In this document: piece after piece, positions 47,445-63,922 of the stretch
Layout of the letters: the number at the start of each line of letters is the position of its first letter
How positions within the stretch are numbered: the stretch's first letter is position 1
Assembly (NCBI GenBank): GCA_017448355.1
Contig: JAFSLQ010000050.1
Location: 33,161 to 97,160, forward strand
Direction: 5' to 3'
DNA length: 64,000 nucleotides
From: Clostridia bacterium
GTDB lineage: Bacteria; Bacillota; Clostridia; Christensenellales; Borkfalkiaceae
Position numbers and translations under genes: made by a program
Notes under the pieces: model-generated
The model's database searches: none
What the model saw: the letters and a program-made list of their open reading frames with translations, nothing else
What the model was told of the DNA's origin: nothing

Positions 47445-47930
47445 TCAAGTATCACATTTCCTGAAACAATTAACACTTTTAATCCATTCAAAAAATTTTA
47501 TGTTTTCTTTTTCATGAACAGGTAACAGCGTTCCGCTTATTTTTATTATATCTATGTATTCATAAATGTCTAATATCGCTTTTTTAGTTAATGTATTATT
47601 GAATACAAAATCATAAAAACTTAATAGTTTTATAAAATATTTTTTTTGATATTCAATATTGTTTAATATTATCAAATCTGCCCGATCAATTACATAATCA
47701 TGTTTACATAATGACATTTCGTGTTCTAAATTAGTCCAAAAATGATGTTGTAATACACATATTTTATTGTTGGCAGCATTTATACTAAAGACAAAAGTAA
47801 AGAAACATTTTTCCCCATTATGCTGAATAATAGTAGGTAAAGACATAAGTTGATTATCTTCTAATAAATAACAACTAGTTTTCTTTATTGTTTCTTGCCA
47901 ATTATTAAAATCTAATAAATTATTTTCCAT
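47445..47930 (-). CDS. Probable immunity protein for the papain-like effector (161 aa)
   Basis: A 161-residue soluble protein of unknown family with aromatic/acidic composition (for example LLDFNNWQETIKK, FSINAANNKICVLQHHFW, ADLIILNNIEYQKKYF). It overlaps the end of the papain-like gene by 11 bp and has its own AGAGG site. This is the toxin-then-immunity arrangement also seen twice upstream. The immunity role is inferred only from position. It is the last gene of the operon. Confidence 0.6.
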   Translation of the reverse strand: MENNLLDFNNWQETIKKTSCYLLEDNQLMSLPTIIQHNGEKCFFTFVFSINAANNKICVLQHHFWTNLEHEMSLCKHDYVIDRADLIILNNIEYQKKYFIKLLSFYDFVFNNTLTKKAILDIYEYIDIIKISGTLLPVHEKENIKFFEWIKSVNCFRKCDT

Positions 47931-48915
47931 CTTTACCTCTTATAGCAAATTGTGTAATATTAATGCCCCTTTCAAAGTTAGACATTTTTGCATAATCGTC
48001 ACACGAAATTATTCGTTTCATATCTCCTGAACCCGTATCGCAAGCCACAAAACCCAATAATTTTCCTGTACTTGCTTCTCTAATTGTCCCATATAAAACT
48101 ACAGCATGTCCAATACCTAATTCACTTTCTCTGTTCCAAAGTATTCCTGAATCTACCGAAACAATAATTCCAAAACCATGTTCTATATAGTAGGCAATTT
48201 GTTCTTGTCCTAATTGTTCAATTTTAGATTTAATATCAAATCTCCCTAACAATTCGGCTCTGTTATATACAGAAGTAGCACCATTAGCTCGCATTGAATG
48301 CTCCATTATATGGCATAAACCTTCGCTTATTGCCACTCTTGCAACATCATTTTCAGTAACCTGTTTGCCTGCTAAAATTAATATTTGTGTCACACATGCT
48401 ATTCCGCAATCGTTTTGCATCCCAAAAACGTTATTCCCCTGCTTGCCTGTAAACGCTTTCTCAATGTCATTTTCCGTTCCGAAAACATAACACGTTTTAT
48501 TAAAATATTTTTTTAGTGAACCAGCAATACATCCATCATCTTCTTCTTGAATCTCTTCTAAAAGATAATCGTCAAGTCCCTCGTTCTGATTAATTAAATT
48601 TAATAAATATAAGGTTTGGACATGTTTTTGTAATGTTTTGCTTAACTTTCCTGTTTTAAAATCATATTCTTTCTTCAAATAGTTATAATAAGCAAATATA
48701 TCATATTTAACGTTTTCTGTAAGTTTAATAATCTTCTTAACTTTAGAAATATTATCTCCAAGAAAACAATCTTCATTTTTTTTTAGATTATAAACAATGG
48801 TATTAAGACTATCACATGTTTTATTCCTTAATAATTTAAGATTTTCTAATGATAGTCTTTCTTCATTAACAAATTGTTTTATAATTTTATTTATATTGTT
48901 TATTGTATCTTGCAT
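47920..48915 (-). CDS. Papain-fold (C39-like) cysteine peptidase effector
   Basis: A 331-residue protein. The first ~150 residues are helical and charged, with no W-x-D motif. The C-terminal domain (about 160-331) is papain-like: Cys170 in MQNDCGIACVTQ, His270 in GIGHAVVLYG and Asp293 in FVACDTGSGD form a plausible triad. This type occurs as a toxin domain in polymorphic toxins and as the bacteriocin-processing peptidase C39. There is no ABC transporter here, so an effector delivered by the adjacent secretion system is more likely. The gene lies 15 bp after the preceding small gene and overlaps a candidate immunity gene. Confidence 0.75.
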   Translation of the reverse strand: MQDTINNINKIIKQFVNEERLSLENLKLLRNKTCDSLNTIVYNLKKNEDCFLGDNISKVKKIIKLTENVKYDIFAYYNYLKKEYDFKTGKLSKTLQKHVQTLYLLNLINQNEGLDDYLLEEIQEEDDGCIAGSLKKYFNKTCYVFGTENDIEKAFTGKQGNNVFGMQNDCGIACVTQILILAGKQVTENDVARVAISEGLCHIMEHSMRANGATSVYNRAELLGRFDIKSKIEQLGQEQIAYYIEHGFGIIVSVDSGILWNRESELGIGHAVVLYGTIREASTGKLLGFVACDTGSGDMKRIISCDDYAKMSNFERGINITQFAIRGKDGK

Positions 48916-48930
48916 GTATTATTTTTAAAA

Positions 48931-49422
48931 TTACATTCTAAAACTATGAGCTTCTTTATCATTAAAAATATACTCCAAATCAAGTATTGCCTCTGACAAC
49001 ATTTTCTCTGCTGTATATTTAAATAAACTACTAACTTTAGCAAAATGATATTTTAGTTCTTTTAAATAGTCTTCCTTTCTTTTTTGCAAATTAACCGTGT
49101 TACCATTTTTCTTTAATCTTGCAATCTGTTCAAGTTCAAGAGAAATGTTTTCTAAAGCTATATATTCTTTATCTGGAAATAACATAGCCTCTTTTTCAAT
49201 TTCTGTTTTATTAATATTAGTTATCTTTTCTCGTGAAACACACATGTTTGCAATATTATTAAAGCCGCTCTCTTCATTTTCATTAAAGTATTTGTCATAT
49301 TGATTATGCAAATATTTCCTATATGCTTCACTAAATTTTGATTGCTTATCTGCAGTTACATTTTTAATAAAAACTTTAATTATAGCATTATATACTTCTT
49401 CTATACGATCAAATCTCTCCAT
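48931..49422 (-). CDS. Probable immunity/chaperone protein for the metallopeptidase effector (163 aa)
   Basis: A 163-residue helical, charged protein of unknown family (NAIIKVFIKNVTADKQSKFSE at the start, LARLKKNGNTVNLQKRKEDY-like coiled region in the middle). It starts at an ATG inside the last codons of the metallopeptidase gene (22-bp overlap) with a very strong GGAGGAAG site, so it is made together with that effector. It could neutralise the peptidase or act as its chaperone. Confidence 0.6.
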   Translation of the reverse strand: MERFDRIEEVYNAIIKVFIKNVTADKQSKFSEAYRKYLHNQYDKYFNENEESGFNNIANMCVSREKITNINKTEIEKEAMLFPDKEYIALENISLELEQIARLKKNGNTVNLQKRKEDYLKELKYHFAKVSSLFKYTAEKMLSEAILDLEYIFNDKEAHSFRM

Positions 49423-50447
49423 GAACTTCCTCCTCCATTTCTATTATTTACCGCCATAATATATCTATTAATTATATAATCTCTATTCGCGCGTCCCATC
49501 TCTCTTTCATAAGATGTCCCGGAAAGGCTACTTTCAAACGCATCTGATAATGCAACCCAATGCCCAAACCCAAGAGTTCTATCCACTTCATGTTCAAGAA
49601 TTTCAGGCTGATTTTGAAAATATGCCTGATAAATCATATCATTACCCATTGCATTTCCCAACACTGCCATAGCGTCTCTATTATTTGAATAGGCTGAGTA
49701 GTCTGCACCATAATCACTTCCAAGAGTTCTTTGTGTTAACAATTCAGTAATAGCCTCATTAACTTGGCGATTTCTTTCATTACCATTTGAATCAGTAGTA
49801 ATAACACCCATTCGTCCATTATTATACGATAATTGATGCAAGTTTTCATGTACGGTCGTCTGCAGCTCGTGACCTGTCCCAACCACAATACGCGACCTAT
49901 GCCCATCATTATATCCCAAAACATCACTATCTTCACCTCGTGCAGTAAACGACTCTCTGGTTTCATATCGTACTGTTGCACTAAGCGGTCGATTTAAATT
50001 TCTTTCCGATATGTAACTTCCAAAATTCTCACGATTAAAAGATTGTACACGGTTTGATATATCATTTATTTGTGATCTCCATTCTCGTACTTCTGATGAG
50101 CATGAATTTAAGGTATAAAGAATAGCATCTCCTAAAATAGAAGAACTTGTATCACCATTTGATCTACTATTTGAAAAATGTATTTTATCATATTCTGAAA
50201 TTATTCTAAACAGTTGCTGTAAAAAGGTCTCACATTGTTTCAGCTCTATTAATGGTTGCTTTAATACATTGCAGCACTTATCAATAATGTCCCCAAAATC
50301 TTTGTATTTTTTATCTTTCCATGTGCTTCCCAATTCTTTATATTGCTTTTGAAGATTTGTAGTCGTTTTCTCTAATTCCGATTGGGATGCTATACATAAT
50401 TTTATAAGTTTTGATATAGATTCCGAATTTACTTCTACTTCACTCAT
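49401..50447 (-). CDS. W-x-D helical domain fused to HExxH metallopeptidase, secreted effector candidate
   Basis: A 348-residue protein with two parts. Residues 1-95 match the stand-alone small protein at 61756-62025, with the same spacing of GSTWKDKKYKDFGDII, later cysteines and a terminal IISEYDK. The C-terminal domain (about 145-348) has a zinc-peptidase motif HENLH (His200, Glu201, His204) and a downstream NEAITE (Glu231, a possible third ligand), in an RIVVGTGHELQTTV context. It is probably a toxin carried by the neighbouring type VII-like system through its N-terminal domain. AGAGGA precedes the ATG. Confidence 0.78.
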   Translation of the reverse strand: MSEVEVNSESISKLIKLCIASQSELEKTTTNLQKQYKELGSTWKDKKYKDFGDIIDKCCNVLKQPLIELKQCETFLQQLFRIISEYDKIHFSNSRSNGDTSSSILGDAILYTLNSCSSEVREWRSQINDISNRVQSFNRENFGSYISERNLNRPLSATVRYETRESFTARGEDSDVLGYNDGHRSRIVVGTGHELQTTVHENLHQLSYNNGRMGVITTDSNGNERNRQVNEAITELLTQRTLGSDYGADYSAYSNNRDAMAVLGNAMGNDMIYQAYFQNQPEILEHEVDRTLGFGHWVALSDAFESSLSGTSYEREMGRANRDYIINRYIMAVNNRNGGGSSWRDLIV

Positions 50448-50464: not shown

Positions 50465-50845
50465 TTATAAAATAATATCCTGTGCCCCTATTAAAAATTC
50501 TTTTTCGTTCTTTATTATAATTGCCAGTCCATGTTCTAAATCAAACTTAAAACTACATAATAACGCTATTACCCTTTCTTGTGTAACACTTCTTTTTATG
50601 TACACATATTGCGGCTTAATGTACCTAAAAATATTATCAACATCATTTCCAATTTGTGCTTTATAATTAATACTTAAATACTCTTTTAGCTTCTGCTGTG
50701 CTTTTTCCAAAAGAATATTTTTTTGTGAAATAAAGTTTAAAAATGTATCTCTTTGAATCTCAGTTATTTTTTCATTGTCAAAACAGTCATAAATAATATC
50801 TAAATTAAATTTTCTACCAAATATTTCAATTTCTAAATTATTCAT
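50465..50845 (-). CDS. Probable immunity protein for the HNH-like effector, DUF6985-like
   Basis: A 126-residue acidic protein. The pattern of an N-terminal IFGRKFNLDIIYDCFDNEKIT, a helix, then ALLCSFKFDLEHGLAIIIKN and a final FLIGAQDIIL resembles DUF6985/DUF2004-type proteins that occur beside polymorphic toxins. The ATG at 50845 is chosen over one three codons earlier because GGAG sits at 9-nt spacing. It overlaps the toxin gene by 8 bp (ATGAATAA), which implies coupled synthesis. Confidence 0.65.
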   Translation of the reverse strand: MNNLEIEIFGRKFNLDIIYDCFDNEKITEIQRDTFLNFISQKNILLEKAQQKLKEYLSINYKAQIGNDVDNIFRYIKPQYVYIKRSVTQERVIALLCSFKFDLEHGLAIIIKNEKEFLIGAQDIIL

Positions 50846-51599
50846 CGAAAACATCTCCGTTCATTCTACTACACTCGCTCACGCCCCCTAAATGCCCAAA
50901 AGTACTATTAATGACAATTGGTATCTTCATACAAGTTCGCATATCATTACACTCGTGCCATGTATAATGATTATTTTCTCTCCACTCGGCAACATCACGT
51001 GGCGTACACCCTCTTCTTTGCGACAGTTGCTCATCCGCTAAACGAAAGTTTAAATATCGCCTTACTGACATTCCATTTATTTCGACTGTTCCCTTTGATA
51101 CTATCCCAAAATCTGGAATACAATTTGTATATTGAACACCCACTTGGCCTACGTCATTTAAATATCTGTTGGCCTCATTATTTGTGGAGACAAATATTGA
51201 CTCTCCCCTATCTCCAAGCCAATTTCCTTCACTTATTGGAGTTTGTCTATAACGATCCTGATAGGAACTATTATAATTGTTGCCCTGATTAATTACATAA
51301 CTGGTTGTTGCTTCTCTGTGACTATTAAACCCAATACCTTCATATTCATTGATAATCGCCAGTATGTTATGGAGATATTCTTTACATCTATTAATATCGC
51401 CATCGGCTTTTCCTAATATAGATTTACAAGAATCAACTATTTCTTTAAAATCATTTCTCTTATTATCTCTCCAATATTTTGAGACTTCGTCATTGCTTTT
51501 ATTGATTTTTCCAACTGTTTGCTTTAACTCCTCTGAAAGCTTATTACACAATAAAATTAAAGAAGAAATCATTTTGGAATCCACAGAGACATTAGACAT
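50838..51599 (-). CDS. W-x-D helical domain fused to HNH/WHH-like nuclease, secreted effector candidate
   Basis: A 253-residue protein. Residues 1-92 form the same helical domain as the other effector (Trp43 and Asp45 in YWRDNKRNDF, then IINEYEGIGF). A linker of about 50 residues leads to a C-terminal domain with YLNFRLADEQLSQRRG, YTWHECNDMRTCMKIP (Trp214, His215) and FGHLGGVS (His236). This layout matches HNH/Endo VII nuclease toxins of the TWHH...H..H.GG type. Two usual histidines are Glu and Asn here, so activity is not assured. An immunity-like gene overlaps its end. Confidence 0.72.
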   Translation of the reverse strand: MSNVSVDSKMISSLILLCNKLSEELKQTVGKINKSNDEVSKYWRDNKRNDFKEIVDSCKSILGKADGDINRCKEYLHNILAIINEYEGIGFNSHREATTSYVINQGNNYNSSYQDRYRQTPISEGNWLGDRGESIFVSTNNEANRYLNDVGQVGVQYTNCIPDFGIVSKGTVEINGMSVRRYLNFRLADEQLSQRRGCTPRDVAEWRENNHYTWHECNDMRTCMKIPIVINSTFGHLGGVSECSRMNGDVFDE

Positions 51600-51603
51600 A
51601 ATA

Positions 51604-52602
51604 TTACCTCAATACAACAGGGAAAAAAGGAATTGACATATTTATTGCTGTTGCTATTATTTCCTCACCCGAACTAATTGAACACGTATCTTCTCCAAGA
51701 TTATGTAATTCAACTTGATTATTACCGAAAACTATTTCTGCCGCATTCGGATAATATCTATAACAATCTTCAATACTCATACCCGAACCGTAATTATTTA
51801 ATAATTGTTGAACTTCTATGACTGCACTTTCTATTTCAGGATTATGAATATTTGAATTAATATGTAAATTTGAAATATCAATCATTCTAACATCTTGATT
51901 ATCTCTTACAAATGCTTCATTGCAACGATCTCTCCTCTCAACATGTAATTCAAGGCTAGAAATTCGTTGACCATTTGCATCAACAAATGGAAACATATTA
52001 TTTACCTGTTGTTCAACACGATTTCCTTGAGTTAAATATATAAAAGAACTTGATCGTTCGCAAAAATTCATAAATGATGGAAACAATGTCTGTACCATAT
52101 TTACAAATGATTCTTTTACATATGATGGACTTACATGTCCATCACTAGGCAATATGGAGTTAAAAATAGTAAATAAAATATTACCAACACCTGCCGAAAT
52201 CTCACGACCTTCTTCTGTAAAAAAATAACTATTTCCTTGCTCTAAAAAGCCCTCCACGTGACTGCTTATATTATTTATAATGCTATTGACTTTATCTTTC
52301 AAAAACGTATTAGGAGTCTTATTTCCTTTTGAAAATGTTATGGATTGATATTCCAAAGCAATGGCATATAAATTGTCTAACTTTTTTATACAGTCTAAAA
52401 GATTTCTTTTAGTATGATTCAAAGCCTCTTCACAAGTAAAAACCACATCCTGAAATTCCTTAACTTTTTTATCCTGCCATTTTGTCATATTTTGTCTGAC
52501 ATTTTTTAAAGTACTATTTATCTTAGAAATTTCAGTCAATATTTGATTACAACGTGAAAAAACAGTTTCAATTGTTTCTATATCAACAGAAATATTAGGC
52601 AT
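51604..52602 (-). CDS. W-x-D helical domain protein with unknown C-terminal domain
   Basis: A 332-residue protein. The N-terminal ~93 residues match the other W-x-D proteins (TKWQDKKVKEFQDVVFTCEE, then LYAIALEYQSITF). Residues 95-332 do not match a toxin family I know; they contain AEIVFGNNQVELHNLGEDT and a hydrophobic end, SIPFFPVVLR. It is followed within 5 bp by the next W-x-D effector and has no gene that could be immunity. It may be a secreted structural or adaptor protein rather than a toxin. AAGGGG precedes the ATG. Confidence 0.65.
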   Translation of the reverse strand: MPNISVDIETIETVFSRCNQILTEISKINSTLKNVRQNMTKWQDKKVKEFQDVVFTCEEALNHTKRNLLDCIKKLDNLYAIALEYQSITFSKGNKTPNTFLKDKVNSIINNISSHVEGFLEQGNSYFFTEEGREISAGVGNILFTIFNSILPSDGHVSPSYVKESFVNMVQTLFPSFMNFCERSSSFIYLTQGNRVEQQVNNMFPFVDANGQRISSLELHVERRDRCNEAFVRDNQDVRMIDISNLHINSNIHNPEIESAVIEVQQLLNNYGSGMSIEDCYRYYPNAAEIVFGNNQVELHNLGEDTCSISSGEEIIATAINMSIPFFPVVLR

Positions 52603-52611: not shown

Positions 52612-53103
52612 TTAAAATTTTTTATTTTTGGACTTTAATGCAAAATCACCTGTTGCACTTTTATCATTATTATTTCTATTTACGTTCCCATTAAGATTTG
52701 TTATCGTTCCTGAAACCGGACCAGAATTACCACATACTGCACAGGTAAAATGCGTCTCTTTTTGCCTTGCACAAGTCAATTCTCCGCAAACATTACATTT
52801 TATAAAGTTTGTATTACCACAATTGGGGCATTTTAGAGTCCCCGAAAAAAACTCTCCATTCACATCCGCATCACTTTTAATAGGCGCTATGTTAATGTTA
52901 ATTAAAGAGATTGATTTAAAAATTGAAGGCTTGTTTTTATGTTGCATTTTTGATTTAAGTCTTTTTTTCTCAAAAAAAGACATATCTGGTAATCTTTCAG
53001 ATTTTATTCCTACCCATTGCCCCGGTGTTTTTTCTTCAAAATATGCTAAATATCTGCCTTTTGAGTTTGCACAATATATTGTTTTTGAAATAATACGCCC
53101 CAT
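52612..53103 (-). CDS. Zinc-ribbon protein of the secretion locus (163 aa)
   Basis: A 163-residue protein with a central-to-C-terminal array of zinc-binding cysteine pairs: LKCPNCGN, IKCNVCGE, LTCARQK and FTCAVCGN, with a histidine between the last two. The spacing resembles the TerY-C type of binuclear zinc module. The N-terminal half is basic (KKRLKSKMQHKNK) and the tail is Asn/Lys-rich. It lies 2 bp after the FtsK-type ATPase gene and 9 bp before the first effector, so it probably acts as an adaptor, but no direct role can be read. Confidence 0.7.
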   Translation of the reverse strand: MGRIISKTIYCANSKGRYLAYFEEKTPGQWVGIKSERLPDMSFFEKKRLKSKMQHKNKPSIFKSISLININIAPIKSDADVNGEFFSGTLKCPNCGNTNFIKCNVCGELTCARQKETHFTCAVCGNSGPVSGTITNLNGNVNRNNNDKSATGDFALKSKNKKF

Positions 53104-53105: not shown

Positions 53106-56100
53106 TTACCTTCTTTCAATAATTGTTTTAATTTCATCCGCTCCTTTTATAACATATGGTTTGAATTGAAAAGTGTTTTTTATACCATCAGTAAAATAAA
53201 CAGTATTATCTTTCATTTGAGAAACTGAAACACCGTCGATAAGATTATCCGCATCATTATCACTTAAAGAAAAGATAATGCGTTCAGGAATTTTTGACAA
53301 AATATTTTCGGAATAATACATTGATTCTTTTACTACCGTATATTCTGTTGAACTGAAAATAAAATATATCCCGCAAGATGACCCCTCATCAATCATGCGT
53401 CTTAACATATATGAAACAGATTCGTTTGATGTTGCATCATCTAGACCCCAATCAAAAGGATTAGATTCTGTTTCTACTTTATCTTCTTTTTTCTCAATAT
53501 AAGCGCTTTCGTCTATTGTCTCATCTTTTAACATCTTTTGAACTATATCAAGCCATTGCAAATTTTTAATGAACACGAAAATGCTGTCATCACTGTTCGT
53601 TTTTTTCTTCACATTAAATTTTTCGTAAATATTACGAACAATTGTAATTATATCTCCACGATTTTCTGCCAAGTTAAAGGTTGAACAGTTTGCAGCAAAA
53701 ACATCATAAATTGCTTGATAACTTCTATCGCCAACAATTACATCTCCATCAATACAGTACATTTCTGTTTTACAATTCAATGCAACTGACAACATATATT
53801 GATTTAAAAGATTTTCAGCCATACGCTCATTACTTCCACATATTAACGTATTATGCTTTCTTCTTCTATCAACATCAATTACAAATGGCGGAGCAACTTT
53901 AATTTTGTCTCCAAGATATATTTTTGTTATAGATGATTCATACTTTCCAATATTGTTATTAAGCAAATAGTCAACCATATTAGTTGTTCTATTACCTTCA
54001 AAAATTTGTGCATGAGAATCTATATCTTTAAACTTATCTGCTATCAATTGTAAATATTTTTGTTGCAAGTCAGAATTGCAATATGCCGCTCTAAATCCGA
54101 TATTAGAATCTTCTATGTATTCTCTATTTAAAACAGCTGTTCCGATAGGACCTTTCATCATTTCGAGTGCTTTTGCATCATTTTTATCAGAAAACAAATA
54201 TCTCGCATCATCTTCACCGCATTTCAGGCCAATTCTAATGCGCATTTGCTCTATTGTTCCCTGTTGTAAAGTCAAGTCTCTTATTACCTTTGTTGATTGA
54301 GTTGCCATTAATAAATGAATGCCAAAGGCACGTCCCTCTGTAACAATACGCTTAGTCAATTCGGCACAGTTTAACGCTATTTTTCTATTCGTCGAATCGT
54401 TAAATAAAATCTGGAATTCATCCATCACTACTAAAATTCTTGGTAACGATTTCCCTGTGTTTTCAGAATATCCTTTTAAACTTGTTTGTCCTACAGATTT
54501 AAATAACTCACCTCTACGTTCCATTTCACTAACAAGGTTTTCAAGAATACTCTCCCCAAACTCTTGCATAGCATCTAACGCTAATAATTTAATGTGCGGC
54601 AATTTAACTGACTCGTAAATTTTAAATTCTGTACCACTCTTAAAGTCCATCAGATATAGATTTAATTTATCAGGCGTATAATTAAGCATCGAACTCATAA
54701 TTATCGTATGCAACAAAGTAGATTTCCCCGACCCTGTTGCGCCGGCAATTAGTCCATGATGTGATGACCCTTCTCCCATTACAAGACTGATAATTGAATT
54801 ACCATCGCCAACCCCCATAGGAATTGTAAGATTCTTCGACGAATCCATCTTGAACATATCCTTTGAAAAAATATCTTCAAATGATAATCCTTTACTTTTC
54901 TTTTTATCCATTATTTTTACATATTCGTCACCAAAATCCTGTAATTCTTTTGACGACAATAAATTATTTATACTTACTTGTAAATTGTATGGACTTAAAG
55001 TATAACAACTATTTGCATATTCAACGCATGTGCTAATTTTCTTTATTTGTTCTAAATACTCTTCATGATTATCATATCTTGATACCGTTATATCTGTGTT
55101 ATAATATATAAACGTATATATCCCACATTTGTTACCGTTTTTCAAAATATTTATAAGTAAATCATATGAACGATTATCAAAACCTTTAGGAAAATCATAA
55201 AACATTAACACATGTATCGGCTCTTGTTTGCTGGTTGAATCCATGTTGTATTCAACAATATTAGCATAACGATTACCTAATTTTTCTTGAATAAACTCGT
55301 CAATGTAACCATTAAAATAATTTAATCTTTCATAAATCAAATCCTGCGTAGTATATATTTGTGAATCAAATATAGCAGGAGCTTTTTTTCTAAAATCAAG
55401 GTATGGAATTATGCTATTTCCTCTTTTTTCCGGATCAAAAACTGAAAAACTTATATCACCATATGGAACAAAAGATAAAAAGTTCATCATAAGGACATGA
55501 CTAAACTTTAATGCATATTCTTGGTCATCATCGTTTGACGTCATTAATACATTAAATCTTTCATTAAAATCACAGGTAAATGGTATTTGCAACACTTTAT
55601 TGTTATGCTTATCCGAAAAACCTTTATTAACTAATTGCGTCGACGCTTCTTTAGGAAAAATCTCCACAGGATACTGAACGCTGCCAAGCATAATTCTCTC
55701 TGGGAACATGAAACTATCTTCAGATATTTTCCCATAATATAAAACATATTGCTTTTGTAACTTAATTATTTCGTCTATATACTTATTGATTTTTGTCTCA
55801 TCTTTTATTTTTATTAAATTTTTAACAATAGACGGTAAAACAATGCCCTCATTGTTTTTACCCTCCATAATTAACATGTATTTATCAGCAAAAGAATTAA
55901 CATCTTGACTTGAAGGTATATTCTTTGCTATAAGTTCAAGACCGTTCATGCAAAATACACCTTGAACATATTTAATTATTGAGCATCTTTCCTTGATTGC
56001 ATTAATGTGTTCTTCTAAATTATAATATCCAGTTTGCTCAACTTTTTTATTATGAATTATTAAAGTAAATATTCCGCACTTACTACCATTTTTAAGGATG

Positions 56101-57693: not shown

Positions 57694-58822
57694 TTTTGCA
57701 TTTCCCGTTGCACTTTGAATTAAAACCAACTTTTAATGATGTTGTAACCTGCAAAGGGTAGCTAAAAATACTTACCATTTCTCCTGCGATTTCCGAATTA
57801 CTTGTATTGCAAACTAACGTATATTGCTTTAAGTCATTTAATAATCTTGGGATATAACTCTTTTCGTTAGAATTTAGAATGTCTATTATTAGTTTAATGC
57901 CGATACATGTTATAAAATTTATATCAACTGAAATACCCGGCTCAAATTTTACACCCTCTATATTTTCTTGGTTAGAATATATATGGTGATTAGCTTCAAC
58001 TCTACCTGATAAATCCCCCCCGTCGCCTAAAGCACAAGAATAACACGGCATATTTCGACCGGGTATATGATAAAAAATTTCTCCTGCGTAAGCACGCTCC
58101 CAAAAACCAATAGAAAGAAACGACGCATCGAAATAAGAAGCAATCCTATTTGCATAAACATCCGCAGAACGATTATCCGCGCAACCAACAAAAACTGTAT
58201 CGTCCTTTTGACAAAATTCACGAAACATTGCTTCTGGCACGTTTTGCACAACTCCGCCAAATTTCACTATTTCAGCAGTTGGGTTTATATTAAGAATTTT
58301 TCGTTCTAATGCATTAACTTTTAAATCTCCCACATCTTCTATTCCGCATTGATGACGACAAATATTGTGATACTCTATAATATCTGCATCTACAAAAAAG
58401 AAATGTCCAACACCAGATCTCGCTAATTCCATAGCAACTAAACTTCCAACAGAGCCGCATCCCAAGACAACAACCCTTTTATTTGCCATTATGTTTGTTT
58501 CTAATATGCCTTTATTACGTGAAAATATATTTTGATACAAATTATAGGTTTCGTATTGTATCCTTTTCCCGTAACTATAAAACTCTATTGTGTCGTTATA
58601 TCGTAAACAACAAAGCTGTAATTTATTGCTTAATTTGCTTCTATCGTTAACAACTTTACCCAACAGTTTTCCCTCTTTTTCTTTTCCTTTGGGAAAAACA
58701 TTGAAAATGGCTGTTTCTTTATAATACCTTCCAAATATACTTCTCTCGGTAGTATCATCCGCTTGCTCTTGCGATATAAAAACTGTTTTCTCGATTTTAT
58801 CACCGAATATATTTTTACTCAT
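57683..58822 (-). CDS. ThiF/E1-like adenylating enzyme
   Basis: A 379-residue E1-like protein. The Rossmann nucleotide-binding loop is VVVLGCGSVGS (about 117-127), followed by FVDADIIEYHNICRHQ (Asp145, Arg156) and DLKVNALERKI (Lys168). FVGCADNRSADVYANR (Cys214, Asp216, Arg218) is the ThiF-type catalytic region, and MPCYSC (Cys260, Cys263) is a zinc or thioester cysteine pair. About 115 residues precede the ThiF fold, longer than in MoeB/ThiF. It would activate the C-terminus of a modifier with ATP. The ATG at 58822 has GGAGAAG 9 nt upstream, and the gene overlaps the JAMM gene by 8 bp. Context points to protein conjugation rather than cofactor sulfur transfer. Confidence 0.85.
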   Translation of the reverse strand: MSKNIFGDKIEKTVFISQEQADDTTERSIFGRYYKETAIFNVFPKGKEKEGKLLGKVVNDRSKLSNKLQLCCLRYNDTIEFYSYGKRIQYETYNLYQNIFSRNKGILETNIMANKRVVVLGCGSVGSLVAMELARSGVGHFFFVDADIIEYHNICRHQCGIEDVGDLKVNALERKILNINPTAEIVKFGGVVQNVPEAMFREFCQKDDTVFVGCADNRSADVYANRIASYFDASFLSIGFWERAYAGEIFYHIPGRNMPCYSCALGDGGDLSGRVEANHHIYSNQENIEGVKFEPGISVDINFITCIGIKLIIDILNSNEKSYIPRLLNDLKQYTLVCNTSNSEIAGEMVSIFSYPLQVTTSLKVGFNSKCNGKCKNEN

Positions 58823-59774
58823 TTGATTCATCTTCTCCAATAAAAAATTTTCTAATATTATTTAAAAACCCTTTTGCTTTTTTCGGCGGCTCCGATAAAA
58901 TATCCTTTATCAATCCCTTCCTGTATTTATAACAATTGTTTTGATATATAAAAACACATTGTTTAAGACTTCTTATGTATGAGAAATATATTTTTGCTTC
59001 ATTATCATCTTTATCGAGCAAACAAATAAAATTATATTCTTTTTGCATATTAAGATTAAGTCTTACATCATTTGCTAAAAATTCTAAATCATCAAAAGTA
59101 ACATCTGAAATAATATCATAATAGTCCTCATCTTTAACCGCCTGAAGGATTTCACCTTCATACTTTTCGCCTGAAAACTCCCCTATTGTTTTACATACAC
59201 GCGATATGATTTCGTTAAAAGTAATTGAAGGCTTGACATTTACGCGTTTAAATATCTCTTTATCATTATTATTGATAAATGAAATATAATCATCAATGTT
59301 ATGCAAACAAAGAATATCCCTTGGAAACATTGCATCATTCACTTCGTATTGGATTTTTCTATACCTTAGAGGGTTAGATACATGATACATTGTTAATCTA
59401 AATTTAGGATCTATATTTACTAATGCAGAAATAGCACCTTGCGGCGCAAGCTGTGCATATTTTGAATTTGTTCCGTCGTCTGTTGTAGAAAACACATCAA
59501 AAGACCCCGGATGCCGATGCCATAATCCTAAAAGAGATAAATTCCTTTTATATATCCTTGCCACCTTATTTATAAGATGTTGCACATATTTTTCGTCATA
59601 CTCAAAATATGCAACTTCAAAAATCGATTTAGGTCCTGGATCTAAACATTCAACTATATACCAAGTCTCATTTTCGTAGTATCCTAAAAAAACACCGCCA
59701 GTCTCAGTCGATATTTTTTCATAAGTTTCAGCCAACAGTTCTATAAATGCACGTTCTGAAAAAACAACCCTCAT
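58815..59774 (-). CDS. JAB/MPN (JAMM) metallopeptidase, deubiquitinase-like
   Basis: A 319-residue protein with a complete JAMM active site: Glu24 in TETGGVFLG, then His86-x-His88-x7-Ser96-x2-Asp99 in GLWHRHPGSFDVFSTTD. The zinc peptidase domain covers about 1-160. The ~160 residues that follow are unassigned, with an acidic helical part and a basic linker before the end. In ubiquitin-like systems such enzymes mature the modifier's C-terminus or remove it from targets. AAAGGGG precedes the ATG, and an intrinsic terminator lies between this gene and the E2-like gene. Confidence 0.9.
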   Translation of the reverse strand: MRVVFSERAFIELLAETYEKISTETGGVFLGYYENETWYIVECLDPGPKSIFEVAYFEYDEKYVQHLINKVARIYKRNLSLLGLWHRHPGSFDVFSTTDDGTNSKYAQLAPQGAISALVNIDPKFRLTMYHVSNPLRYRKIQYEVNDAMFPRDILCLHNIDDYISFINNNDKEIFKRVNVKPSITFNEIISRVCKTIGEFSGEKYEGEILQAVKDEDYYDIISDVTFDDLEFLANDVRLNLNMQKEYNFICLLDKDDNEAKIYFSYIRSLKQCVFIYQNNCYKYRKGLIKDILSEPPKKAKGFLNNIRKFFIGEDESNE

Positions 59775-59842: not shown

Positions 59843-60391
59843 TTAATAATTACCTTCAAGCGCAACATCATCGCTTATTTCGCCGTTCATCCACATCTCA
59901 CACAGCATCATCCATTTACATGCCCAACTTAATGCCGTAGCAGCCGAAGTTGAATGAGCTTGATTTGTTTTAAAATACTTTGGATCAGCTGTACAAATAA
60001 AGTACTCTTCGTTTCTGCCAAAGTTTTCTCTGTAAATATGTGGCAATCCTAAACCAAACCCTCGTTGCGCACACTTATCATATGTTCCGTAAGTTTTAAT
60101 CAAATCTGGCATTGTTTGCTCGGCAATATCTTTCAGTCTTGGTGAAATAGGCAATATTTGTACTGAGCCACCGTATTCATTAACGCCTGCATGTGGATGG
60201 TCATTTTTATAAATAAGCATAACATCCCAAGTTAAGCCGCCAGGTATCGGTTGCACCTTTCCTCTCCAATATAATCTACCCGAACCGTCTTGTAATTGAT
60301 TAATCTTGAATTGGGGGAAAAATTTTTGCATTGCCATAACTTCTGCCTGATAAAGTTCAGGATCATTCTGATACCAATAATAAAAAGCCAT
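59843..60391 (-). CDS. E2-like (UBC-fold) ubiquitin-conjugating-type protein
   Basis: A 182-residue protein with the layout of prokaryotic E2s: strands around LYWRGKVQPIPGG and WDVMLIYKNDHP, then GLPHIYRENFGRNEEYFICTADP, with His118 and the likely catalytic Cys133 where E2s have their P-H...C pattern. A terminal helix SWACKWMMLCEMWMNGE, equivalent to the W...W(L)..YE.W..G element, follows. It would carry the activated modifier from E1. Cys107 is another possible nucleophile. GGAGGG sits at 4-nt spacing before the ATG. It follows a 56-aa gene by 17 bp. Confidence 0.78.
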   Translation of the reverse strand: MAFYYWYQNDPELYQAEVMAMQKFFPQFKINQLQDGSGRLYWRGKVQPIPGGLTWDVMLIYKNDHPHAGVNEYGGSVQILPISPRLKDIAEQTMPDLIKTYGTYDKCAQRGFGLGLPHIYRENFGRNEEYFICTADPKYFKTNQAHSTSAATALSWACKWMMLCEMWMNGEISDDVALEGNY

Positions 60392-60408: not shown

Positions 60409-60579
60409 TTAAGCCAGTTTTCCACTTGGAACTTGAATTGCCGACTGTCCGTCAGCCTGAGCTTCTTCTTTAAATTCAACCTCTCCAGAAGGAGCGACCA
60501 CAACATCTTGACCGTTTTTCAACGCTTCGGCTAACGCCCTACGTCTTGCAACTACTGCATCATTGTTCTGATTATCCAT
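60409..60579 (-). CDS. 56-aa protein before the E2-like gene, candidate modifier
   Basis: A 56-codon gene with a strong AAAGGAGAG ribosome binding site 7 nt before its ATG, between the B-box membrane protein (18 bp upstream) and the E2-like gene. The N-terminal third is a likely short helix (AVVARRRALAEALKNGQ); the rest is Ser/Gly/Glu/Gln-rich and probably disordered, ending VPSGKLA. It contains no cysteine. It occupies the place where conjugation operons often carry the modifier. Removal of KLA by the JAMM enzyme would expose a C-terminal glycine. It is too short for a beta-grasp fold, so if it is a modifier it would be Pup-like in size. The gene is well supported; its role is a hypothesis. 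Confidence 0.7.
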   Translation of the reverse strand: MDNQNNDAVVARRRALAEALKNGQDVVVAPSGEVEFKEEAQADGQSAIQVPSGKLA

Positions 60580-60597: not shown

Positions 60598-61431
60598 TTA
60601 AGCTGCAAAGCTTCTAATTATTTCACCGTTTTCATTAATGCTCGTTACGCAGTTTCTAATTCTACTCTCAGCATTTTCTTCACCATTTGCCGCAACAGCT
60701 TGTGCATAAGAGTTGTTATATAATTCGCTTCCTTCGTTCATAAGAGTCGCCAGATCTACACCAACATTACGGCTACGAACCATAGTGTATTCCATATAGT
60801 CTTTCATCTCTTGTAAACAGTTTGAATCTGATTTTATAAAGCCAGAGGTTTTTATTATATATTTTGTATAATAGAATAGTTTTCTTATTGTTCCCCAAAC
60901 AGCTAGAAAAATTGATTTAAAAAACCCTAAAACCAAGCCAAATACTGCACCTAACCATTCTCCGTTAGACATCGCTTCAAGCGTGTATTTCGCAACTCTC
61001 AAAACATTAAGTGCAAAAGTCCAAGCACAACCGCCAATAAAAACGCACAAAAGAACTATTAATGTCGGATCAAACGTATGCGTCGTCGAAGACGATACAA
61101 TTGAGCCTCCAATAATTCCGCCCAACGCCATACCTAAAGCAGTAAAAATGTAGTTAAAAATAATCGTTCTACGTTGCTTTTTAAGTTCTTTAACGTTTTC
61201 TGCGACAATTTCTTGACAGCAGTCGTAACACAATGCTTTACCTGCATATTCGCCAGATGTAACCTGATATGTATCATAGCAATCTTGACAAATAGGCTTG
61301 CCACATTTAGCACATTTTGCTACTGCTTGCTCGTTTTGATGATAATAGCAAGAATTGCCATTACTCGACGACTGTTGCGGCGGAACAAATGTTGGCGCCG
61401 GCGGGGTGAAAGTTGGGATCTCATTACTCAT
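60598..61431 (-). CDS. Membrane protein with B-box-like zinc finger
   Basis: A 277-residue protein. A proline-rich start (about 6-19, TFTPPAPTFVPP) is followed by a binuclear zinc finger with B-box-like spacing: Cys28, His31, Cys40, Cys43, Cys48, Cys51, Cys68, Cys71. Three to four membrane segments lie about 89-108, 121-145 and 160-185, and a cytoplasmic helical tail ends the protein. B-box/RING-type fingers act with E2s in eukaryotes, so it could recruit the E2-like protein to the membrane or be a channel component. It is the only clear polytopic protein of the locus. It follows the W-x-D genes by 43 bp. Confidence 0.78.
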   Translation of the reverse strand: MSNEIPTFTPPAPTFVPPQQSSSNGNSCYYHQNEQAVAKCAKCGKPICQDCYDTYQVTSGEYAGKALCYDCCQEIVAENVKELKKQRRTIIFNYIFTALGMALGGIIGGSIVSSSTTHTFDPTLIVLLCVFIGGCAWTFALNVLRVAKYTLEAMSNGEWLGAVFGLVLGFFKSIFLAVWGTIRKLFYYTKYIIKTSGFIKSDSNCLQEMKDYMEYTMVRSRNVGVDLATLMNEGSELYNNSYAQAVAANGEENAESRIRNCVTSINENGEIIRSFAA

Positions 61432-61474: not shown

Positions 61475-61744
61475 TTAAAACTTAACACTACTATACCTAT
61501 CTAATGTTTCAGCAATTTTATTAAGCCTCGGTATTGCCGCTTCTAACGTTTGTATGGGCGATTGAGTTAAGGTTGATATTCTATTTACTACTTCTTTAAA
61601 TTGCACACCTTGCGCATCGTTCCAATCGCCAACATTACCAGCACTTTTTACTTGACTGCTAATATCTCTTAAATTATTTATTGTCGCTTTTAAATCACTT
61701 GCCAATTGTCTAACAACTTCTGAAGATGCTTTTATTTGAGACAT
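61475..61744 (-). CDS. Small WXG100-fold-like helical protein, W-x-D type (89 aa, first copy)
   Basis: An 89-residue two-helix protein with a loop motif DWNDAQ (Trp41, Asp43) at the position of the WXG turn, and a terminal ETLDRYSSVKF. The length fits WXG100 proteins, secreted substrates of type VII systems that dimerise as helical hairpins. AAAGGAG precedes the ATG. The second 89-aa gene lies 11 bp upstream. It has no cysteines, unlike its neighbour. Confidence 0.82.
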   Translation of the reverse strand: MSQIKASSEVVRQLASDLKATINNLRDISSQVKSAGNVGDWNDAQGVQFKEVVNRISTLTQSPIQTLEAAIPRLNKIAETLDRYSSVKF

Positions 61745-61755: not shown

Positions 61756-62025
61756 TTATGCGTTTTGATATTCTATAATAATGCTTTCTAATTCAGCTAA
61801 CGTTTGATGACATTCTTGTAGCTGGGCCATTGGAGACTTCATCGCATCATTACAGGTTTTTACAATATCACCCAATTCCCTATACTTAGAATCTTTCCAA
61901 CCATTACCAGCCGCTGCATACTTTTCTGCTAGATTCTTCGCAGCGGCATTAAGCTCTTTCGCAGCATCAACACAGGACTTCTTTGCTTTTTGAACAGCAC
62001 CCAATGTTACATCTACATTTGCCAT
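61756..62025 (-). CDS. Small WXG100-fold-like helical protein, W-x-D type (89 aa, second copy)
   Basis: An 89-residue helical hairpin with GNGWKDSKYRELGDIVKTC (Trp43, Asp45) and three cysteines. It is clearly homologous to the N-terminal domains of the effectors at 49401-50447, 50838-51599 and 51604-52602, including the terminal IIIEYQN. It probably forms dimers or heterodimers with them as an export partner. GGAGG precedes the ATG. Confidence 0.85.
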   Translation of the reverse strand: MANVDVTLGAVQKAKKSCVDAAKELNAAAKNLAEKYAAAGNGWKDSKYRELGDIVKTCNDAMKSPMAQLQECHQTLAELESIIIEYQNA

Positions 62026-62039
62026 ATTCTACCTCCGAT

Positions 62040-62768
62040 TTATGCACTTAAATATTCGTTCAAATATTGAAGACATTGATCAACCCCTGACAATCCACGG
62101 CCTGCAACATTTTCAGAACTTGATTCCAAACTTTTACTTTGTTCCGATAAAGCCCTGCCTTTATCATATATAGATTGTTTTAATGACTTCATTTGATTTA
62201 ATTTTTCTACTTCTTTATCTATTTCCTGATTTAGCTTTTCTATTTCTTCTTTATATCGATTAATAGACTCTCTAATTGCATTCAAATCCGTTTTAATCTT
62301 ATCTCTCTTAACGCTTATCTCCGAAATCTTATCATCAAGTTTGGATGCTTCATTTTCTAATGCACTAATTATTGCATCGTATTGCCCAACGTCCTCCGAA
62401 GAATCTTCTTCCTCCGATTGCCTATTAACGGCTTGACACCTAGCAGCCCTTGCACGACTTATTTCGGCTGAAATTTCTCTTTCCCTTTGCTCTAAAACCG
62501 ATTTTTCATTTTCTAATTGCTTTAATTCTTTAACCTTTTTTCCTTCCTCTTCTTCGGCAGCATGTAAAGAATTTTTCAATTTTTCTCTATCTTCTTTTAA
62601 TTTGTTGACTTTTTCTGTTTGTTTTTGAACCGCAGTATTGCACTCTTCATTTATCACAGAAACATCTTTATTAATTTTTGACGAAAAACCATTTATGTTT
62701 TGTTTAAAAGTCCCAAGCGAAGTTTTAACTTTTTCAAATGCCGATATGGAAACATCTACCTCTGCCAA
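62040..62768 (-). CDS. Long coiled-coil protein of the secretion locus
   Basis: A 242-residue protein made almost entirely of coiled coil, with long Glu/Lys heptad stretches from about 35 to 205 broken by a short SEEEDSSEDVG loop near 120. The N- and C-terminal 25 residues may fold back together. It starts at TTG (62768) with GGAGTTAGG upstream; no ATG is available in a suitable place. It is about twice the length of a WXG100 protein and could act as a filament, spacer or LXG-like helical module. It is coupled to the small gene upstream (12 bp). Confidence 0.78.
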   Translation of the reverse strand: MAEVDVSISAFEKVKTSLGTFKQNINGFSSKINKDVSVINEECNTAVQKQTEKVNKLKEDREKLKNSLHAAEEEEGKKVKELKQLENEKSVLEQREREISAEISRARAARCQAVNRQSEEEDSSEDVGQYDAIISALENEASKLDDKISEISVKRDKIKTDLNAIRESINRYKEEIEKLNQEIDKEVEKLNQMKSLKQSIYDKGRALSEQSKSLESSSENVAGRGLSGVDQCLQYLNEYLSA

Positions 62769-62780
62769 AACACCTAACTC

Positions 62781-63008
62781 CTATCCTTGATCTGAAAGTG
62801 ACTGAAAACGTTTTACATCTGCTGAAAAATCTTCCGCACTACTTATTACACCTTTAGAATTATTTGCTATTGTGCTTATTAGCGACGAAAGTTGTGCATA
62901 TTTATCATCATGCCAGTTTATCCCAACACTTGCAACATCACCACTCAAACGTTTAACTTCATTTTTAAATTTATCTATTTCTGCATTAATAGAATTGATA
63001 CCACTCAT
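62781..63008 (-). CDS. Small WXG100-fold-like helical protein, W-x-D type (75 aa)
   Basis: A 75-residue helical hairpin with GINWHDDKYAQLSS (Trp32, Asp34), the shortest of the W-x-D proteins. It lies 15 bp after the zinc-ribbon protein gene and precedes the coiled-coil gene. The ribosome binding site is weak, so translation is probably coupled. It is most likely another secreted or structural partner. Confidence 0.75.
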   Translation of the reverse strand: MSGINSINAEIDKFKNEVKRLSGDVASVGINWHDDKYAQLSSLISTIANNSKGVISSAEDFSADVKRFQSLSDQG

Positions 63009-63023
63009 ATTACAAAAAGATTT

Positions 63024-63779
63024 TTAATATTTATCCCACTCATCATTTGCAACTACACTATATTTATCATCGACATAAGCCAATCGTATTTTTTCAAAAT
63101 CTCTAATTAAACATTGCCTTTGTTCTAAAGATATTAACTTAACAAACGAGCATTTTTTGCTTTGATTTTTTAAATAAATTGTGTTACAAATAACTGTTGT
63201 AAACTTCAAAAATGCATTTTCGACAGCTTTATAAAGCTTATCGCAATTAATAACCAATTCGTTTTGAAGACACTTTCTTAACTCGCCTATATAAGAAAAA
63301 ATATAACCATAATTATCAAGATTTTGCTTCCTGTATTTTGCAATATTTAAATTTCTATCTGCTTTTGAGCTTAACATATTGCAAAAGCCATTGATTTCAA
63401 TAATAAATCTTTGCGCTATATTATCGTTAATAACGGTTATTACAGCAAGCATTTTAAGGTAATTGCCGAAATTATTAGTTAAAAAACAATTACACTCATT
63501 TTCTAATTCTAAAAGCGATCTATCATCTGGTGAATATAATAGTGCTTTTTGAACCAACTTTTTTGCACTCTGATAATCTCCCAAATATAACAATCTACCA
63601 ACCCTTAGAACAACTTTGCACGTTTCAAAATGCTCGATATTTTCTACGATGTTTATATTTTCTATTGTTGGCTGTCTTAAACGAATTCGTGTATTGCAAT
63701 ACCTACATACTACCTCATTTAAATCATTTGGAGAATCTATTATTCCCGCTCCGCAGTTGGGACATTTATAAGCTTCCAA
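63024..63779 (-). CDS. Zinc-ribbon and TPR-like helical protein, first gene of the operon
   Basis: A 251-residue protein. The N-terminal zinc ribbon has YKCPNCGAG and VVCRYCNTR (four cysteines, residues about 5-30), and TPR-like helices follow (for example LLYLGDYQSAKKLVQKALLYSPDD, interrupted by turns). The C-terminal 120 residues are helical. Translation starts at TTG (63779), preceded by AAAGGG at suitable spacing. Being first in the operon with no catalytic motif, it is likely an adaptor or assembly factor. A promoter and operator-like palindromes lie 45-220 bp upstream. Confidence 0.75.
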   Translation of the reverse strand: MEAYKCPNCGAGIIDSPNDLNEVVCRYCNTRIRLRQPTIENINIVENIEHFETCKVVLRVGRLLYLGDYQSAKKLVQKALLYSPDDRSLLELENECNCFLTNNFGNYLKMLAVITVINDNIAQRFIIEINGFCNMLSSKADRNLNIAKYRKQNLDNYGYIFSYIGELRKCLQNELVINCDKLYKAVENAFLKFTTVICNTIYLKNQSKKCSFVKLISLEQRQCLIRDFEKIRLAYVDDKYSVVANDEWDKY

Positions 63780-63824
63780 CAGTTTTTATCCCTTTAAAAC
63801 ACTCATTTATTGCTACCTAATTTT

Positions 63825-63875
63825 TAATAGGTGAACTAATTTATTATGTATTTGTTCGCCTATTAGTGTAATAGG
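63825..63875. promoter_or_regulatory. Operator-like palindromes in the leader of the secretion operon
   Basis: CCTATTA-gtg-TAATAGG (63859-63875) is a perfect inverted repeat about 10 nt after the expected transcription start. TAATAGGTGAAC (63825-63836) and GTTCGCCTATTA (63854-63865) form a second inverted repeat with one mismatch. A further copy, GTTCACCTAT, lies at 63991-64000 upstream of the -35. Repeated half-sites on both sides of the promoter suggest repression by a dimeric regulator, not identified here. Confidence 0.7.
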
Positions 63876-63893
63876 TGGCTTTATAATGTATAA

Positions 63894-63922
63894 ATTATAT
63901 AAGAAATGTCGAAAAATGTCAA
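63894..63922 (-). promoter_or_regulatory. Consensus sigmaA promoter of the 16-kb secretion/ubiquitin-like operon
   Basis: On the minus strand TTGACA (63922-63917), 17 bp, and TATAAT (63899-63894) match consensus at all twelve positions. It drives 63024 and everything downstream to about 47445; no other clear promoter was seen within the operon. Confidence 0.9.

What the first reader, a model, noticed from the sequence alone, without database searches (positions are those of the whole stretch)
47445..63922. A type VII-like secretion operon that contains a full ubiquitin-like enzyme set
One promoter reads through W-x-D helical proteins, a B-box membrane protein, E2-like, JAMM and E1-like genes, an FtsK-type ATPase and toxin-immunity pairs. 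The E2-JAMM-E1 order recalls the BilB-BilC-BilD order of bacterial ISG15-like operons, but here it sits inside a secretion system rather than standing alone. Two roles can be imagined: modifying effectors or secretion components before export, or controlling them by removable tags. To my knowledge YukD-type ubiquitin-like proteins belong to some type VII systems, but a complete E1/E2/JAMM set here would be unusual.
Basis: partly seen in the sequence, partly recalled or inferred. Interest (0 to 1): 0.92.

Follow-up and report, generated by a model that had tools for sequence, protein, structure and literature searches.

The report
Secretion operon carrying protein-tagging kit
A predicted toxin-export gene cluster from gut bacteria carries its own ubiquitin-style tagging enzymes plus an overlooked tiny protein that looks like the tag itself, suggesting that some bacteria may control a secretion machine with a removable protein label.

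Summary
One same-strand operon (63779-47445, gaps of at most 68 nt, perfect sigma-70-like promoter upstream) encodes WXG100-like proteins, a B-box membrane protein, E2, JAB, E1, an EccC-like FtsK ATPase and WxD-headed effectors. The order recurs in 27 other loci as far as contigs reach; one (L021) lacks wxgA and the coiled-coil gene.

It ends in invariant GKLA; 18 stop there, 11 have variable 3-4-aa tails. I propose it is a non-beta-grasp modifier, trimmed and removed by JAB and activated by an E1 whose best solved match is MccB, a peptide-adenylating enzyme.

One relative (L051) keeps the secretion genes but lacks the cassette. Its C-terminal ATPase domains are equally similar, but its FtsK N-terminal half has diverged, most sharply in segment 91-180 (4 of 23 conserved positions kept; 80-100% elsewhere), and the B-box C-tail is lost. 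This points to the machine, not the WXG proteins, as target.

No paper found describes this.

The parts
63894..63922 (-). promoter-like TTGACA-17-TATAAT, 12 of 12 positions
   Evidence: consensus match only
63024..63779 (-). zinc-ribbon/TPR-like first gene; weak Pfam matches below cut-off; homologue found in only one of 27 other loci (L004)
62781..63008 (-). wxgA, small W-x-D protein
   Evidence: (sequence), conserved order; no WXG100 hit in Pfam
62040..62768 (-). CC, coiled-coil-like protein
   Evidence: only generic coiled-coil matches; conserved order
61756..62025 (-). wxgB, WXG100-like (W-K-D)
   Evidence: Pfam WXG100 E=0.002, below cut-off
61475..61744 (-). wxgC, WXG100-like (W-N-D)
   Evidence: Pfam WXG100 E=4e-5, below cut-off
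60598..61431 (-). B-box zinc-finger membrane protein with PTFxPP-like repeats at the N-terminus and a cassette-linked C-tail ENGEIIRxF...A
60409..60579 (-).
59843..60391 (-). E2 (UBC-like); invariant C133, C158, C164; C133 proposed catalytic
58815..59774 (-). JAB/JAMM peptidase with intact H86xH88...S96xxD99 and E24
57683..58840 (-). E1 (ThiF family), best solved match MccB
57448..57729 (-). 93-aa protein, homologue found in only one of 27 other loci (L005)
53106..57470 (-). EccC/EssC-like FtsK ATPase with an N-terminal part poor in Pro and Gly (probably helical); residues 91-180 are cassette-linked
52612..53103 (-). TerY_C-type zinc-ribbon protein
   Evidence: Pfam 7.9e-7, 29.7 bits against a cut-off of 28.4
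51604..52602 (-). predicted effector: W-x-D N-terminus, unknown C-terminal domain
50838..51599 (-). predicted effector: W-x-D N-terminus with WHH/colicin-type nuclease domain
   Evidence: Pfam 8.1e-9
50465..50854 (-). DUF6985, likely immunity protein of the WHH nuclease
   Evidence: Pfam 2.3e-13; role inferred from position
49401..50447 (-). predicted effector: W-x-D N-terminus, HExxH (HENLH) read by eye
   Evidence: no Pfam domain
48931..49422 (-). possible immunity protein
   Evidence: position only; no domain above cut-off
47920..48915 (-). C39-like cysteine peptidase, possible effector
   Evidence: Pfam 8.5e-4, below cut-off
47445..47930 (-). possible immunity protein
   Evidence: position only

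Best explanation
The operon encodes a type-VII-like secretion system with its own small-protein conjugation cassette. Inferred chain: JAB trims the 56-aa protein to ...GKLA; the MccB-like E1 adenylates the terminal alanine; E2 takes it on C133 and attaches it to a part of the secretion machine, most likely the N-terminal part of the FtsK ATPase (around residues 91-180) or the C-terminal tail of the B-box membrane protein; JAB removes it again. The tag would gate, assemble or membrane-anchor the ATPase. Shown: the genes, their order, intact JAB and adenylation motifs, the conserved 56-aa ORF, and the change of two machine elements in the one cassette-free relative. Inferred: every biochemical step and the target.
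For: E2 profiles match 27 of 27 members scanned. JAB motif invariant in 27 of 27 rows. E1: GxGxxG and R162/K174/D222 conserved in 26 or 27 of 27 rows, one row being a fragment (equivalence to MoeB R73/K86/D130 is by eye, the MoeB residues from a passage of PMC12355090). 56-aa ORF with a Shine-Dalgarno-like motif in 28 of 28 loci (where several starts were possible the script used that motif to choose) and the ORF again in L050; GKLA invariant in 29 of 29, 11 of 29 with 3-4-aa tails; codon-position mismatch 0.29/0.185/0.678, i.e. coding. Single copy in 27 of 27 genomes searched. E1 best PDB match MccB 2e-11. Precedent: CBASS cGAS, not beta-grasp, is conjugated through C-terminal Gly or Ala and released by JAB Cap3 at that end (PMC10097602, passages). 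Cassette-free L051: FtsK 91-180 keeps 4 of 23 conserved positions against 263 of 290 in 276-1454 (Fisher 2.1e-14); 25 cassette-bearing FtsKs keep 80-100% of 91-180 in leave-one-out counts. B-box tail 7 of 25 kept against 85-100% in 28 cassette-bearing rows; zinc-finger region 14 of 18 with all zinc-ligand Cys/His kept. WXG proteins in L051 as similar as elsewhere. No E2 or modifier elsewhere in the L051 genome.
Against: No structure could be predicted, so neither the UBC fold nor the modifier fold is tested; the E2 profile has no PDB match at E<=1, and hhalign of it to two single E2-containing sequences found nothing. The E1 has no invariant Cys between its two zinc pairs (C344 in 24 of 27), so an E1 thioester is uncertain. 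Only one cassette-free locus is known. Its FtsK has diverged over the whole N-terminal half, not in 91-180 alone (identity to cassette-bearing FtsKs against their own pairs: 1-90 14 v 23%, 181-275 15 v 25%, 276-560 27 v 39%; 22 of 31 conserved positions kept in 276-560), so the drop may partly be general drift. Its nested place in the tree is supported 94/96, and the AU test does not reject one clade of cassette-bearing loci (p=0.050), so loss against never having had the cassette is open. B-box C-termini also end in Ala (24 of 28), so the modifier could be that protein instead. Secretion itself is not shown.
Confidence: 0.55

Rival explanations
1. The conjugated end is the C-terminus of the B-box membrane protein itself (as CD-NTase in CBASS), covalently tying it to the ATPase or another partner; the 56-aa protein is a cofactor.
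For: B-box proteins end in Ala in 24 of 28 cassette-bearing loci although the linker after GEIIRxF varies from 1 to 11 residues; the cassette-free L051 ends in Lys; C-termini of JAB, FtsK and CC are variable.
Against: The last residues are less constant than GKLA (V or E in 4 of 28); the 56-aa protein sits in the BilA place and GKLA is invariant in 29 of 29. Shared ancestry alone keeps other C-termini constant: E2 ends in Y in 28 of 28, wxgC in F in 20 of 24, E1 in K in 16 of 26.
Confidence: 0.15
2. The cassette tags effectors or WXG proteins before export.
For: Effectors and WXG partners lie in the same operon.
Against: WXG proteins show no cassette-linked change in L051, while machine parts do. 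Effectors of L051 were not compared.
Confidence: 0.14
3. The cassette is an anti-phage Bil- or CBASS-like module that hitch-hikes in the operon.
For: Order E2-JAB-E1 as in Bil (recalled); the window has a defence island at 21-43 kb; the E2 profiles that match come from a defence library.
Against: No cassette seen without secretion genes in 28 loci as far as contigs reach; co-change with FtsK and B-box elements; no CD-NTase hit among the operon proteins scanned.
Confidence: 0.08
4. The 56-aa protein is a peptide natural-product precursor modified by the MccB-like enzyme and exported.
For: Best solved match of the E1 is MccB.
Against: E2 and JAB are present too in every locus whose contig reaches them; the C-terminus is invariant, unlike a diversified toxin core.
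Confidence: 0.05

Closest known systems
Type VII secretion subtypes T7SSa-T7SSj (PMC11217815, abstract, outline and passages seen)
   Same: WXG100-family small proteins; EccC/EssC-type FtsK ATPase; adjacent WxD-headed toxins
   Different: That paper gives every subtype the canonical ATPase (called membrane-bound in the passages seen on a, b, f, g, h) and all but T7SSd a YukD-like protein; here 18 of 26 ATPases have no hydropathy-predicted membrane helix, there is no YukD hit in the operon, and E1/E2/JAB plus a small GKLA protein are present; ThiF, JAB, B-box and 'deubiquit' are not found in its text
Bil operons BilABCD (recalled; not read)
   Same: modifier-E2-JAB-E1 gene order
   Different: BilA is beta-grasp and Bil stands alone (recalled); here the first gene is a 56-aa protein with no ubiquitin-fold match in PDB sequences, inside a secretion operon
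CBASS type II Cap2/Cap3 (PMC10097602, passages read)
   Same: E1/E2 and JAB act on a non-beta-grasp protein through a C-terminal Gly or Ala
   Different: no CD-NTase hit; the proposed modifier is a dedicated 56-aa protein; E1 and E2 are separate genes
MccB (PDB 6om4, 3h5n)
   Same: best solved match of the E1; activates the C-terminus of a short peptide (recalled)
   Different: no E2 or JAB partner (recalled)
Pup and the proteasomal ATPase Mpa (starts of abstracts in the listing; Mpa coiled coil recalled)
   Same: small non-ubiquitin-fold tag; ATPase with helical stalk (here inferred from composition)
   Different: Pup uses glutamine-synthetase-like ligases (recalled), not E1/E2

Membership tests
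Type VII secretion system | WXG100-family protein | tested here: met
   Best Pfam family for wxgC (4e-5) and wxgB (0.002), though below cut-off; motif is W-x-D
Type VII secretion system | EccC/EssC-type ATPase by homology | tested here: met
   PDB 4nh0 (named FtsK/SpoIIIE; EccC from memory) 5.6e-29, EccC5 1.6e-23, YukB 3.5e-16
Type VII secretion system | EccC/EssC curated cut-offs | tested here: not met
   EccCa 123.5 of 509 bits; EssCb 107.7 of 778
Type VII secretion system | membrane-bound ATPase | tested here: inconclusive
   hydropathy only: no helix in 18 of 26 sequences (two of the 26 are fragments); 8 have weak peaks (mean 1.62-1.81), four of them near residue 340-360
Type VII secretion system | YukD/EsaB, EsaA, EssA, EssB | tested here: not met
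   no Pfam or NCBIfam hit in the operon proteins scanned; the rest of the genome was not searched for them
Type VII secretion system | protein export | not testable with these tools
   needs secretion assay
Bil system | E2-JAB-E1 order and motifs | tested here: met
   (Bil order recalled)
Bil system | beta-grasp BilA | tested here: inconclusive
   no ubiquitin-fold match in PDB or Pfam for the 56-aa protein; no fold prediction possible
Bil system | stand-alone operon | tested here: not met
   beside the secretion genes in 28 of 28 loci as far as contigs reach
CBASS type II | CD-NTase and effector | tested here: not met
   no hit among the operon proteins scanned
Pupylation | Pup family and PafA/Dop ligase | tested here: not met
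   no Pup match; no PafA-like hit among the operon proteins scanned
E1-activated protein modifiers | C-terminal adenylation and E2 thioester of the 56-aa protein | not testable with these tools
   needs biochemistry

The most novel reading that the evidence does not exclude
The 56-aa GKLA protein founds a new class of E1/E2-conjugated modifier that is neither ubiquitin-fold, Pup nor CD-NTase, and its reversible attachment to the ATPase N-terminal stalk or B-box tail is a licensing switch for a type-VII-like secretion machine whose ATPase is itself perhaps soluble.
Probability: 0.35. Interest if true: 0.95.

Novelty: new variant of a known kind. Interest (0 to 1): 0.86.

Why it matters
It would be, as far as the searches made here show, the first dedicated ubiquitin-style conjugation system built into a bacterial secretion machine, and would add a new kind of small protein tag. 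It bears on why type VII systems so often carry a ubiquitin-fold protein that is itself not conjugated (YukD; PMC1779556, passage). It is directly testable: four short genes suffice for a thioester and conjugation assay, and one carrier record is a named strain of a gut commensal (Faecalibacterium prausnitzii ATCC 27768, L014).

Tried and rejected
Beta-grasp modifier elsewhere in the operon: gene families shared by at least 4 of 27 loci were listed: B-box, JAB, E1, FtsK, WXG, CC, E2, an M48-type gene, the 56-aa protein, a cluster of antisense shadow ORFs and a 4-locus cluster whose L021 member looks by eye like an integrase. None had a ubiquitin-fold hit in the scans made, which covered the window's genes and a few others, not every locus. 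YdfZ as relative of the 56-aa protein: E=0.0016, 19.2 bits against a cut-off of 27, in one of four members scanned; not accepted. PDB hits of the 56-aa profile are repeat or helix matches, the best ones designed TIM barrels; judged artefacts. B-box as the dedicated E3: weakened, since its zinc region survives in cassette-free L051. Phage, plasmid or viral origin: no E2 relative found in 50,697 phage records, 72,556 plasmid records or IMG/VR. Distant FtsK hits G1083 and G923 lack the cassette and lie among other genes; G1501 has a short FtsK (1216-aa frame) and no E2 or modifier match, its neighbours (L059) were fetched but not read. JAB length against tail presence: no clear link seen (by eye).

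Rows dropped: L006 was left out of A2; L015 and L030, whose FtsK is in two ORFs or cut, were left out of the stalk comparison; genes at contig ends were left out of the C-terminus count; L032/G341 is the genome of L020 and is not counted twice.
Full report
What is there. The window is part of a 97-kb contig in a 1.94-Mb genome and ends at the contig end. From 63779 down to 47445 all genes lie on the - strand with gaps of at most 68 nt, behind a perfect sigma-70-like promoter at 63922-63894 (the region has no excess of matches, 102 against 96.2). The order is: zinc/TPR gene, wxgA, coiled-coil (CC), wxgB, wxgC, B-box membrane protein, a 56-aa gene, E2, JAB, E1, 93-aa gene, FtsK, TerY_C zinc ribbon, then W-x-D-headed effectors with putative immunity genes. 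Profiles: ThiF 3.4e-25, Prok-JAB 2.5e-7, B-box 9.2e-5 just under its cut-off, WXG100 4e-5 and 0.002 under theirs; FtsK 6.8e-30, WHH nuclease 8.1e-9, DUF6985 2.3e-13. The E2 has no credible Pfam or any NCBIfam match but matches PADLOC E2 models at 2.9e-11 over residues 15-169, as do 27 of 27 members scanned.

Conservation. One scan with the E2 gave 27 loci in other genomes, 66-86% identical, mostly labelled Clostridia or their families, including Faecalibacterium prausnitzii ATCC 27768 and three MAGs labelled Spirochaetes, Defluviitaleaceae and Phycisphaerales. The neighbouring secretion genes are present as far as each contig reaches: L004 ends after E2 and L006 before FtsK, and L012, L022 and L025 begin after the WXG genes. 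The exception is L021, which has two WXG genes but no CC and no separate wxgA although the contig covers the place. The system is rare: modifier profile in 2 of 391 genomes of the class, four further weak hits being judged chance matches inside long frames; E2 in 1 of 398 of the phylum, the window's own. It was not found on plasmids, in phages or in viral contigs.

The missed gene. Between B-box and E2 every locus has a short ORF with a Shine-Dalgarno-like motif (28 of 28, the motif also used to choose among starts), and so has L050. It encodes 54-70 aa: a variable N-terminus, a basic ARRRALAEAL stretch, VVVTPSGEVE and a C-terminal IxVPxGKLA. Mismatches per codon position (0.29, 0.185, 0.678 over 406 pairs) show that it is coding; GKLA is invariant in 29 of 29; 18 end there and 11 carry tails such as GED, KED, RRG or FKEA. 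It is single copy in 27 of 27 genomes. In four members scanned no Pfam model reaches its cut-off, the window's copy has no PHROG match, and the profile finds only helix or repeat matches in PDB; NCBIfam and PADLOC were not tried for it. Position, size, constant small C-terminal residue and variable tails beside a JAB gene are what one expects of a modifier precursor. The E1's best solved relative is MccB (2e-11), then UBA5 and Cap2. CBASS shows that a protein without ubiquitin fold can be conjugated through C-terminal Gly or Ala and freed by JAB (PMC10097602, passages).

Catalytic parts. JAB E24, H86, H88, S96, D99 are invariant in 27 of 27 rows; E1 R162, K174 and D222 are in 27, 26 and 26 of 27, one row being a fragment. 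E2 C133, C158 and C164 are invariant in 28 of 28; I favour C133 because of its setting PH...C, seen by eye also in a Bradyrhizobium CBASS-like E2, which hhalign did not confirm. The E1 has CxxC/CxxxC zinc pairs but no invariant Cys between them (C344 in 24 of 27). Hence an E1 thioester is uncertain.

Natural experiment. FtsK searches at E<=1e-60 found the ATPase in 2 of 391 (class), 1 of 28 (order of G341), 6 of 397 (family of the L013 genome) and 2 of 297 genomes (family of the L014 genome). Three of these hits (G1083, G923, G1501) are distant, shorter ATPases. Close hits that were neither the window's genome nor the centre of the search that first found them are G341 (the L020 genome), G798 (the L017 genome), G837 (L050) and G1198 (L051): three carry the cassette, G1198 does not, and neither modifier nor E2 is found elsewhere in G1198. 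In L051 wxgA, CC, wxgB, wxgC, B-box and FtsK are open and B-box is followed directly by FtsK, about 50 nt on. Its C-terminal FtsK blocks are about as similar to cassette-bearing ones as those are to each other (median identities: 561-860 39 v 41%, 861-1130 67 v 72%, 1131-1454 44 v 47%). The N-terminal half is lower throughout (1-90 14 v 23%, 181-275 15 v 25%, 276-560 27 v 39%), and segment 91-180 falls most, 20 v 52.5%, below the lowest cassette-bearing pair, 32%. Of positions conserved in at least 90% of 25 cassette-bearing FtsKs, L051 keeps 4 of 23 in 91-180, 22 of 31 in 276-560 and 263 of 290 in 276-1454 (Fisher 91-180 against 276-1454 2.1e-14); leave-one-out controls keep 80-100% of 91-180, the window itself 22 of 27. 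The B-box keeps its zinc ligands but only 7 of 25 conserved tail positions; the 28 cassette-bearing rows keep 85-100%. wxgA, wxgB, wxgC are unchanged (31 v 32, 43 v 38, 41 v 37%) and CC slightly lower (19 v 23%). The simplest reading is that the stalk segment and the tail interact with, or are substrates of, the cassette. Limits: one such locus; general drift of its N-terminal half is possible; its nested position has support 94/96 and the AU test gives p=0.050, so loss is not proven.

A second Ala end. B-box proteins end in Ala in 24 of 28 cassette-bearing loci at 1-11 residues after GEIIRxF, while L051 ends in Lys. Other C-termini: JAB, FtsK and CC vary, E1 ends in K in 16 of 26, wxgC in F in 20 of 24, E2 in Y in 28 of 28, so a constant last residue alone is no proof. 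This keeps alive the rival that the B-box C-terminus is itself conjugated, or that both ends are substrates.

Mechanism. Most likely the modifier is trimmed, activated, transferred and attached to the ATPase stalk or B-box tail, and JAB reverses this, so that the ATPase is tethered or licensed at the membrane through the B-box protein. By hydropathy 18 of 26 ATPase sequences have no membrane helix; 8 have weak peaks, four of them near residue 340-360, which I take for the core of a degenerate ATPase domain (inference). Steps shown: gene content, motifs, co-conservation, co-change in L051. Steps inferred: adenylation, thioester, target, effect on export.

Known systems. The widest T7SS survey seen in the library (PMC11217815; abstract, outline and passages) lists subtypes a-j; ThiF, JAB, B-box and 'deubiquit' do not occur in its text, and it says a YukD-like protein without GlyGly is present in all the new ones but T7SSd. 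Iyer 2006 (PMC1779556, passages) places YukD with ESAT-6 systems and states it is not conjugated. The 2012 polymorphic-toxin survey (PMC3482391, passages) has no hit for E2-like, E1-like or ThiF in the 300,000 characters held. Literature searches listed no paper that I recognise as describing E1/E2/JAB in a type VII system; the listings were capped, and subscription papers, most Bil papers and preprints are not held, so absence from print is not established.

Noticed in passing
window 20000-43000: AT-rich defence island next to the operon (about 27-37% GC against about 41% at 1-20 kb): PDC-S53, LmuB-like, PDC-S31, type IIG restriction, PDC-S49, TIR-TM matches, with an istA/istB-like transposase pair (named by eye) at 17790-20004 at its edge.
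   Followed up: partly
L027, L028, L029 upstream of the 56-aa gene: A second small ORF with a similar RRxxL...VxV stretch but no GKLA end in these three loci (labelled Spirochaetes, Defluviitaleaceae, Phycisphaerales).
   Followed up: no
downstream of FtsK in 13 of 27 loci (cluster 7), also L050:14387-15364: A gene of about 290 aa; the three members scanned (L027, L013, L050) match peptidase M48. Not seen next to FtsK in the window.
   Followed up: partly
L021:7219-8145 (- strand): An integrase-like gene (by eye) on the opposite strand sits where wxgA and CC would be; this locus lacks both.
   Followed up: no
L057 (Caballeronia plasmid) and L058 (Helicobacter plasmid): FtsK genes with distant similarity to this ATPase in Gram-negative bacteria, beside WXG100, VWA, PP2C and kinase genes (L057) or HNH nuclease with SMI1/KNR4 (L058).
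   Followed up: no
L038 (Bradyrhizobium barranii plasmid): Separate JAB, E2-like and E1 genes with what looks by eye like a CD-NTase, plus dsDNA-nuclease-domain and TIR genes: a CBASS-like layout with split enzymes.
   Followed up: partly
window 53106-57470, residues 96, 100, 140, 162 of FtsK: Conserved lysines in the cassette-linked stalk segment, not kept in L051; possible acceptor sites.
   Followed up: no
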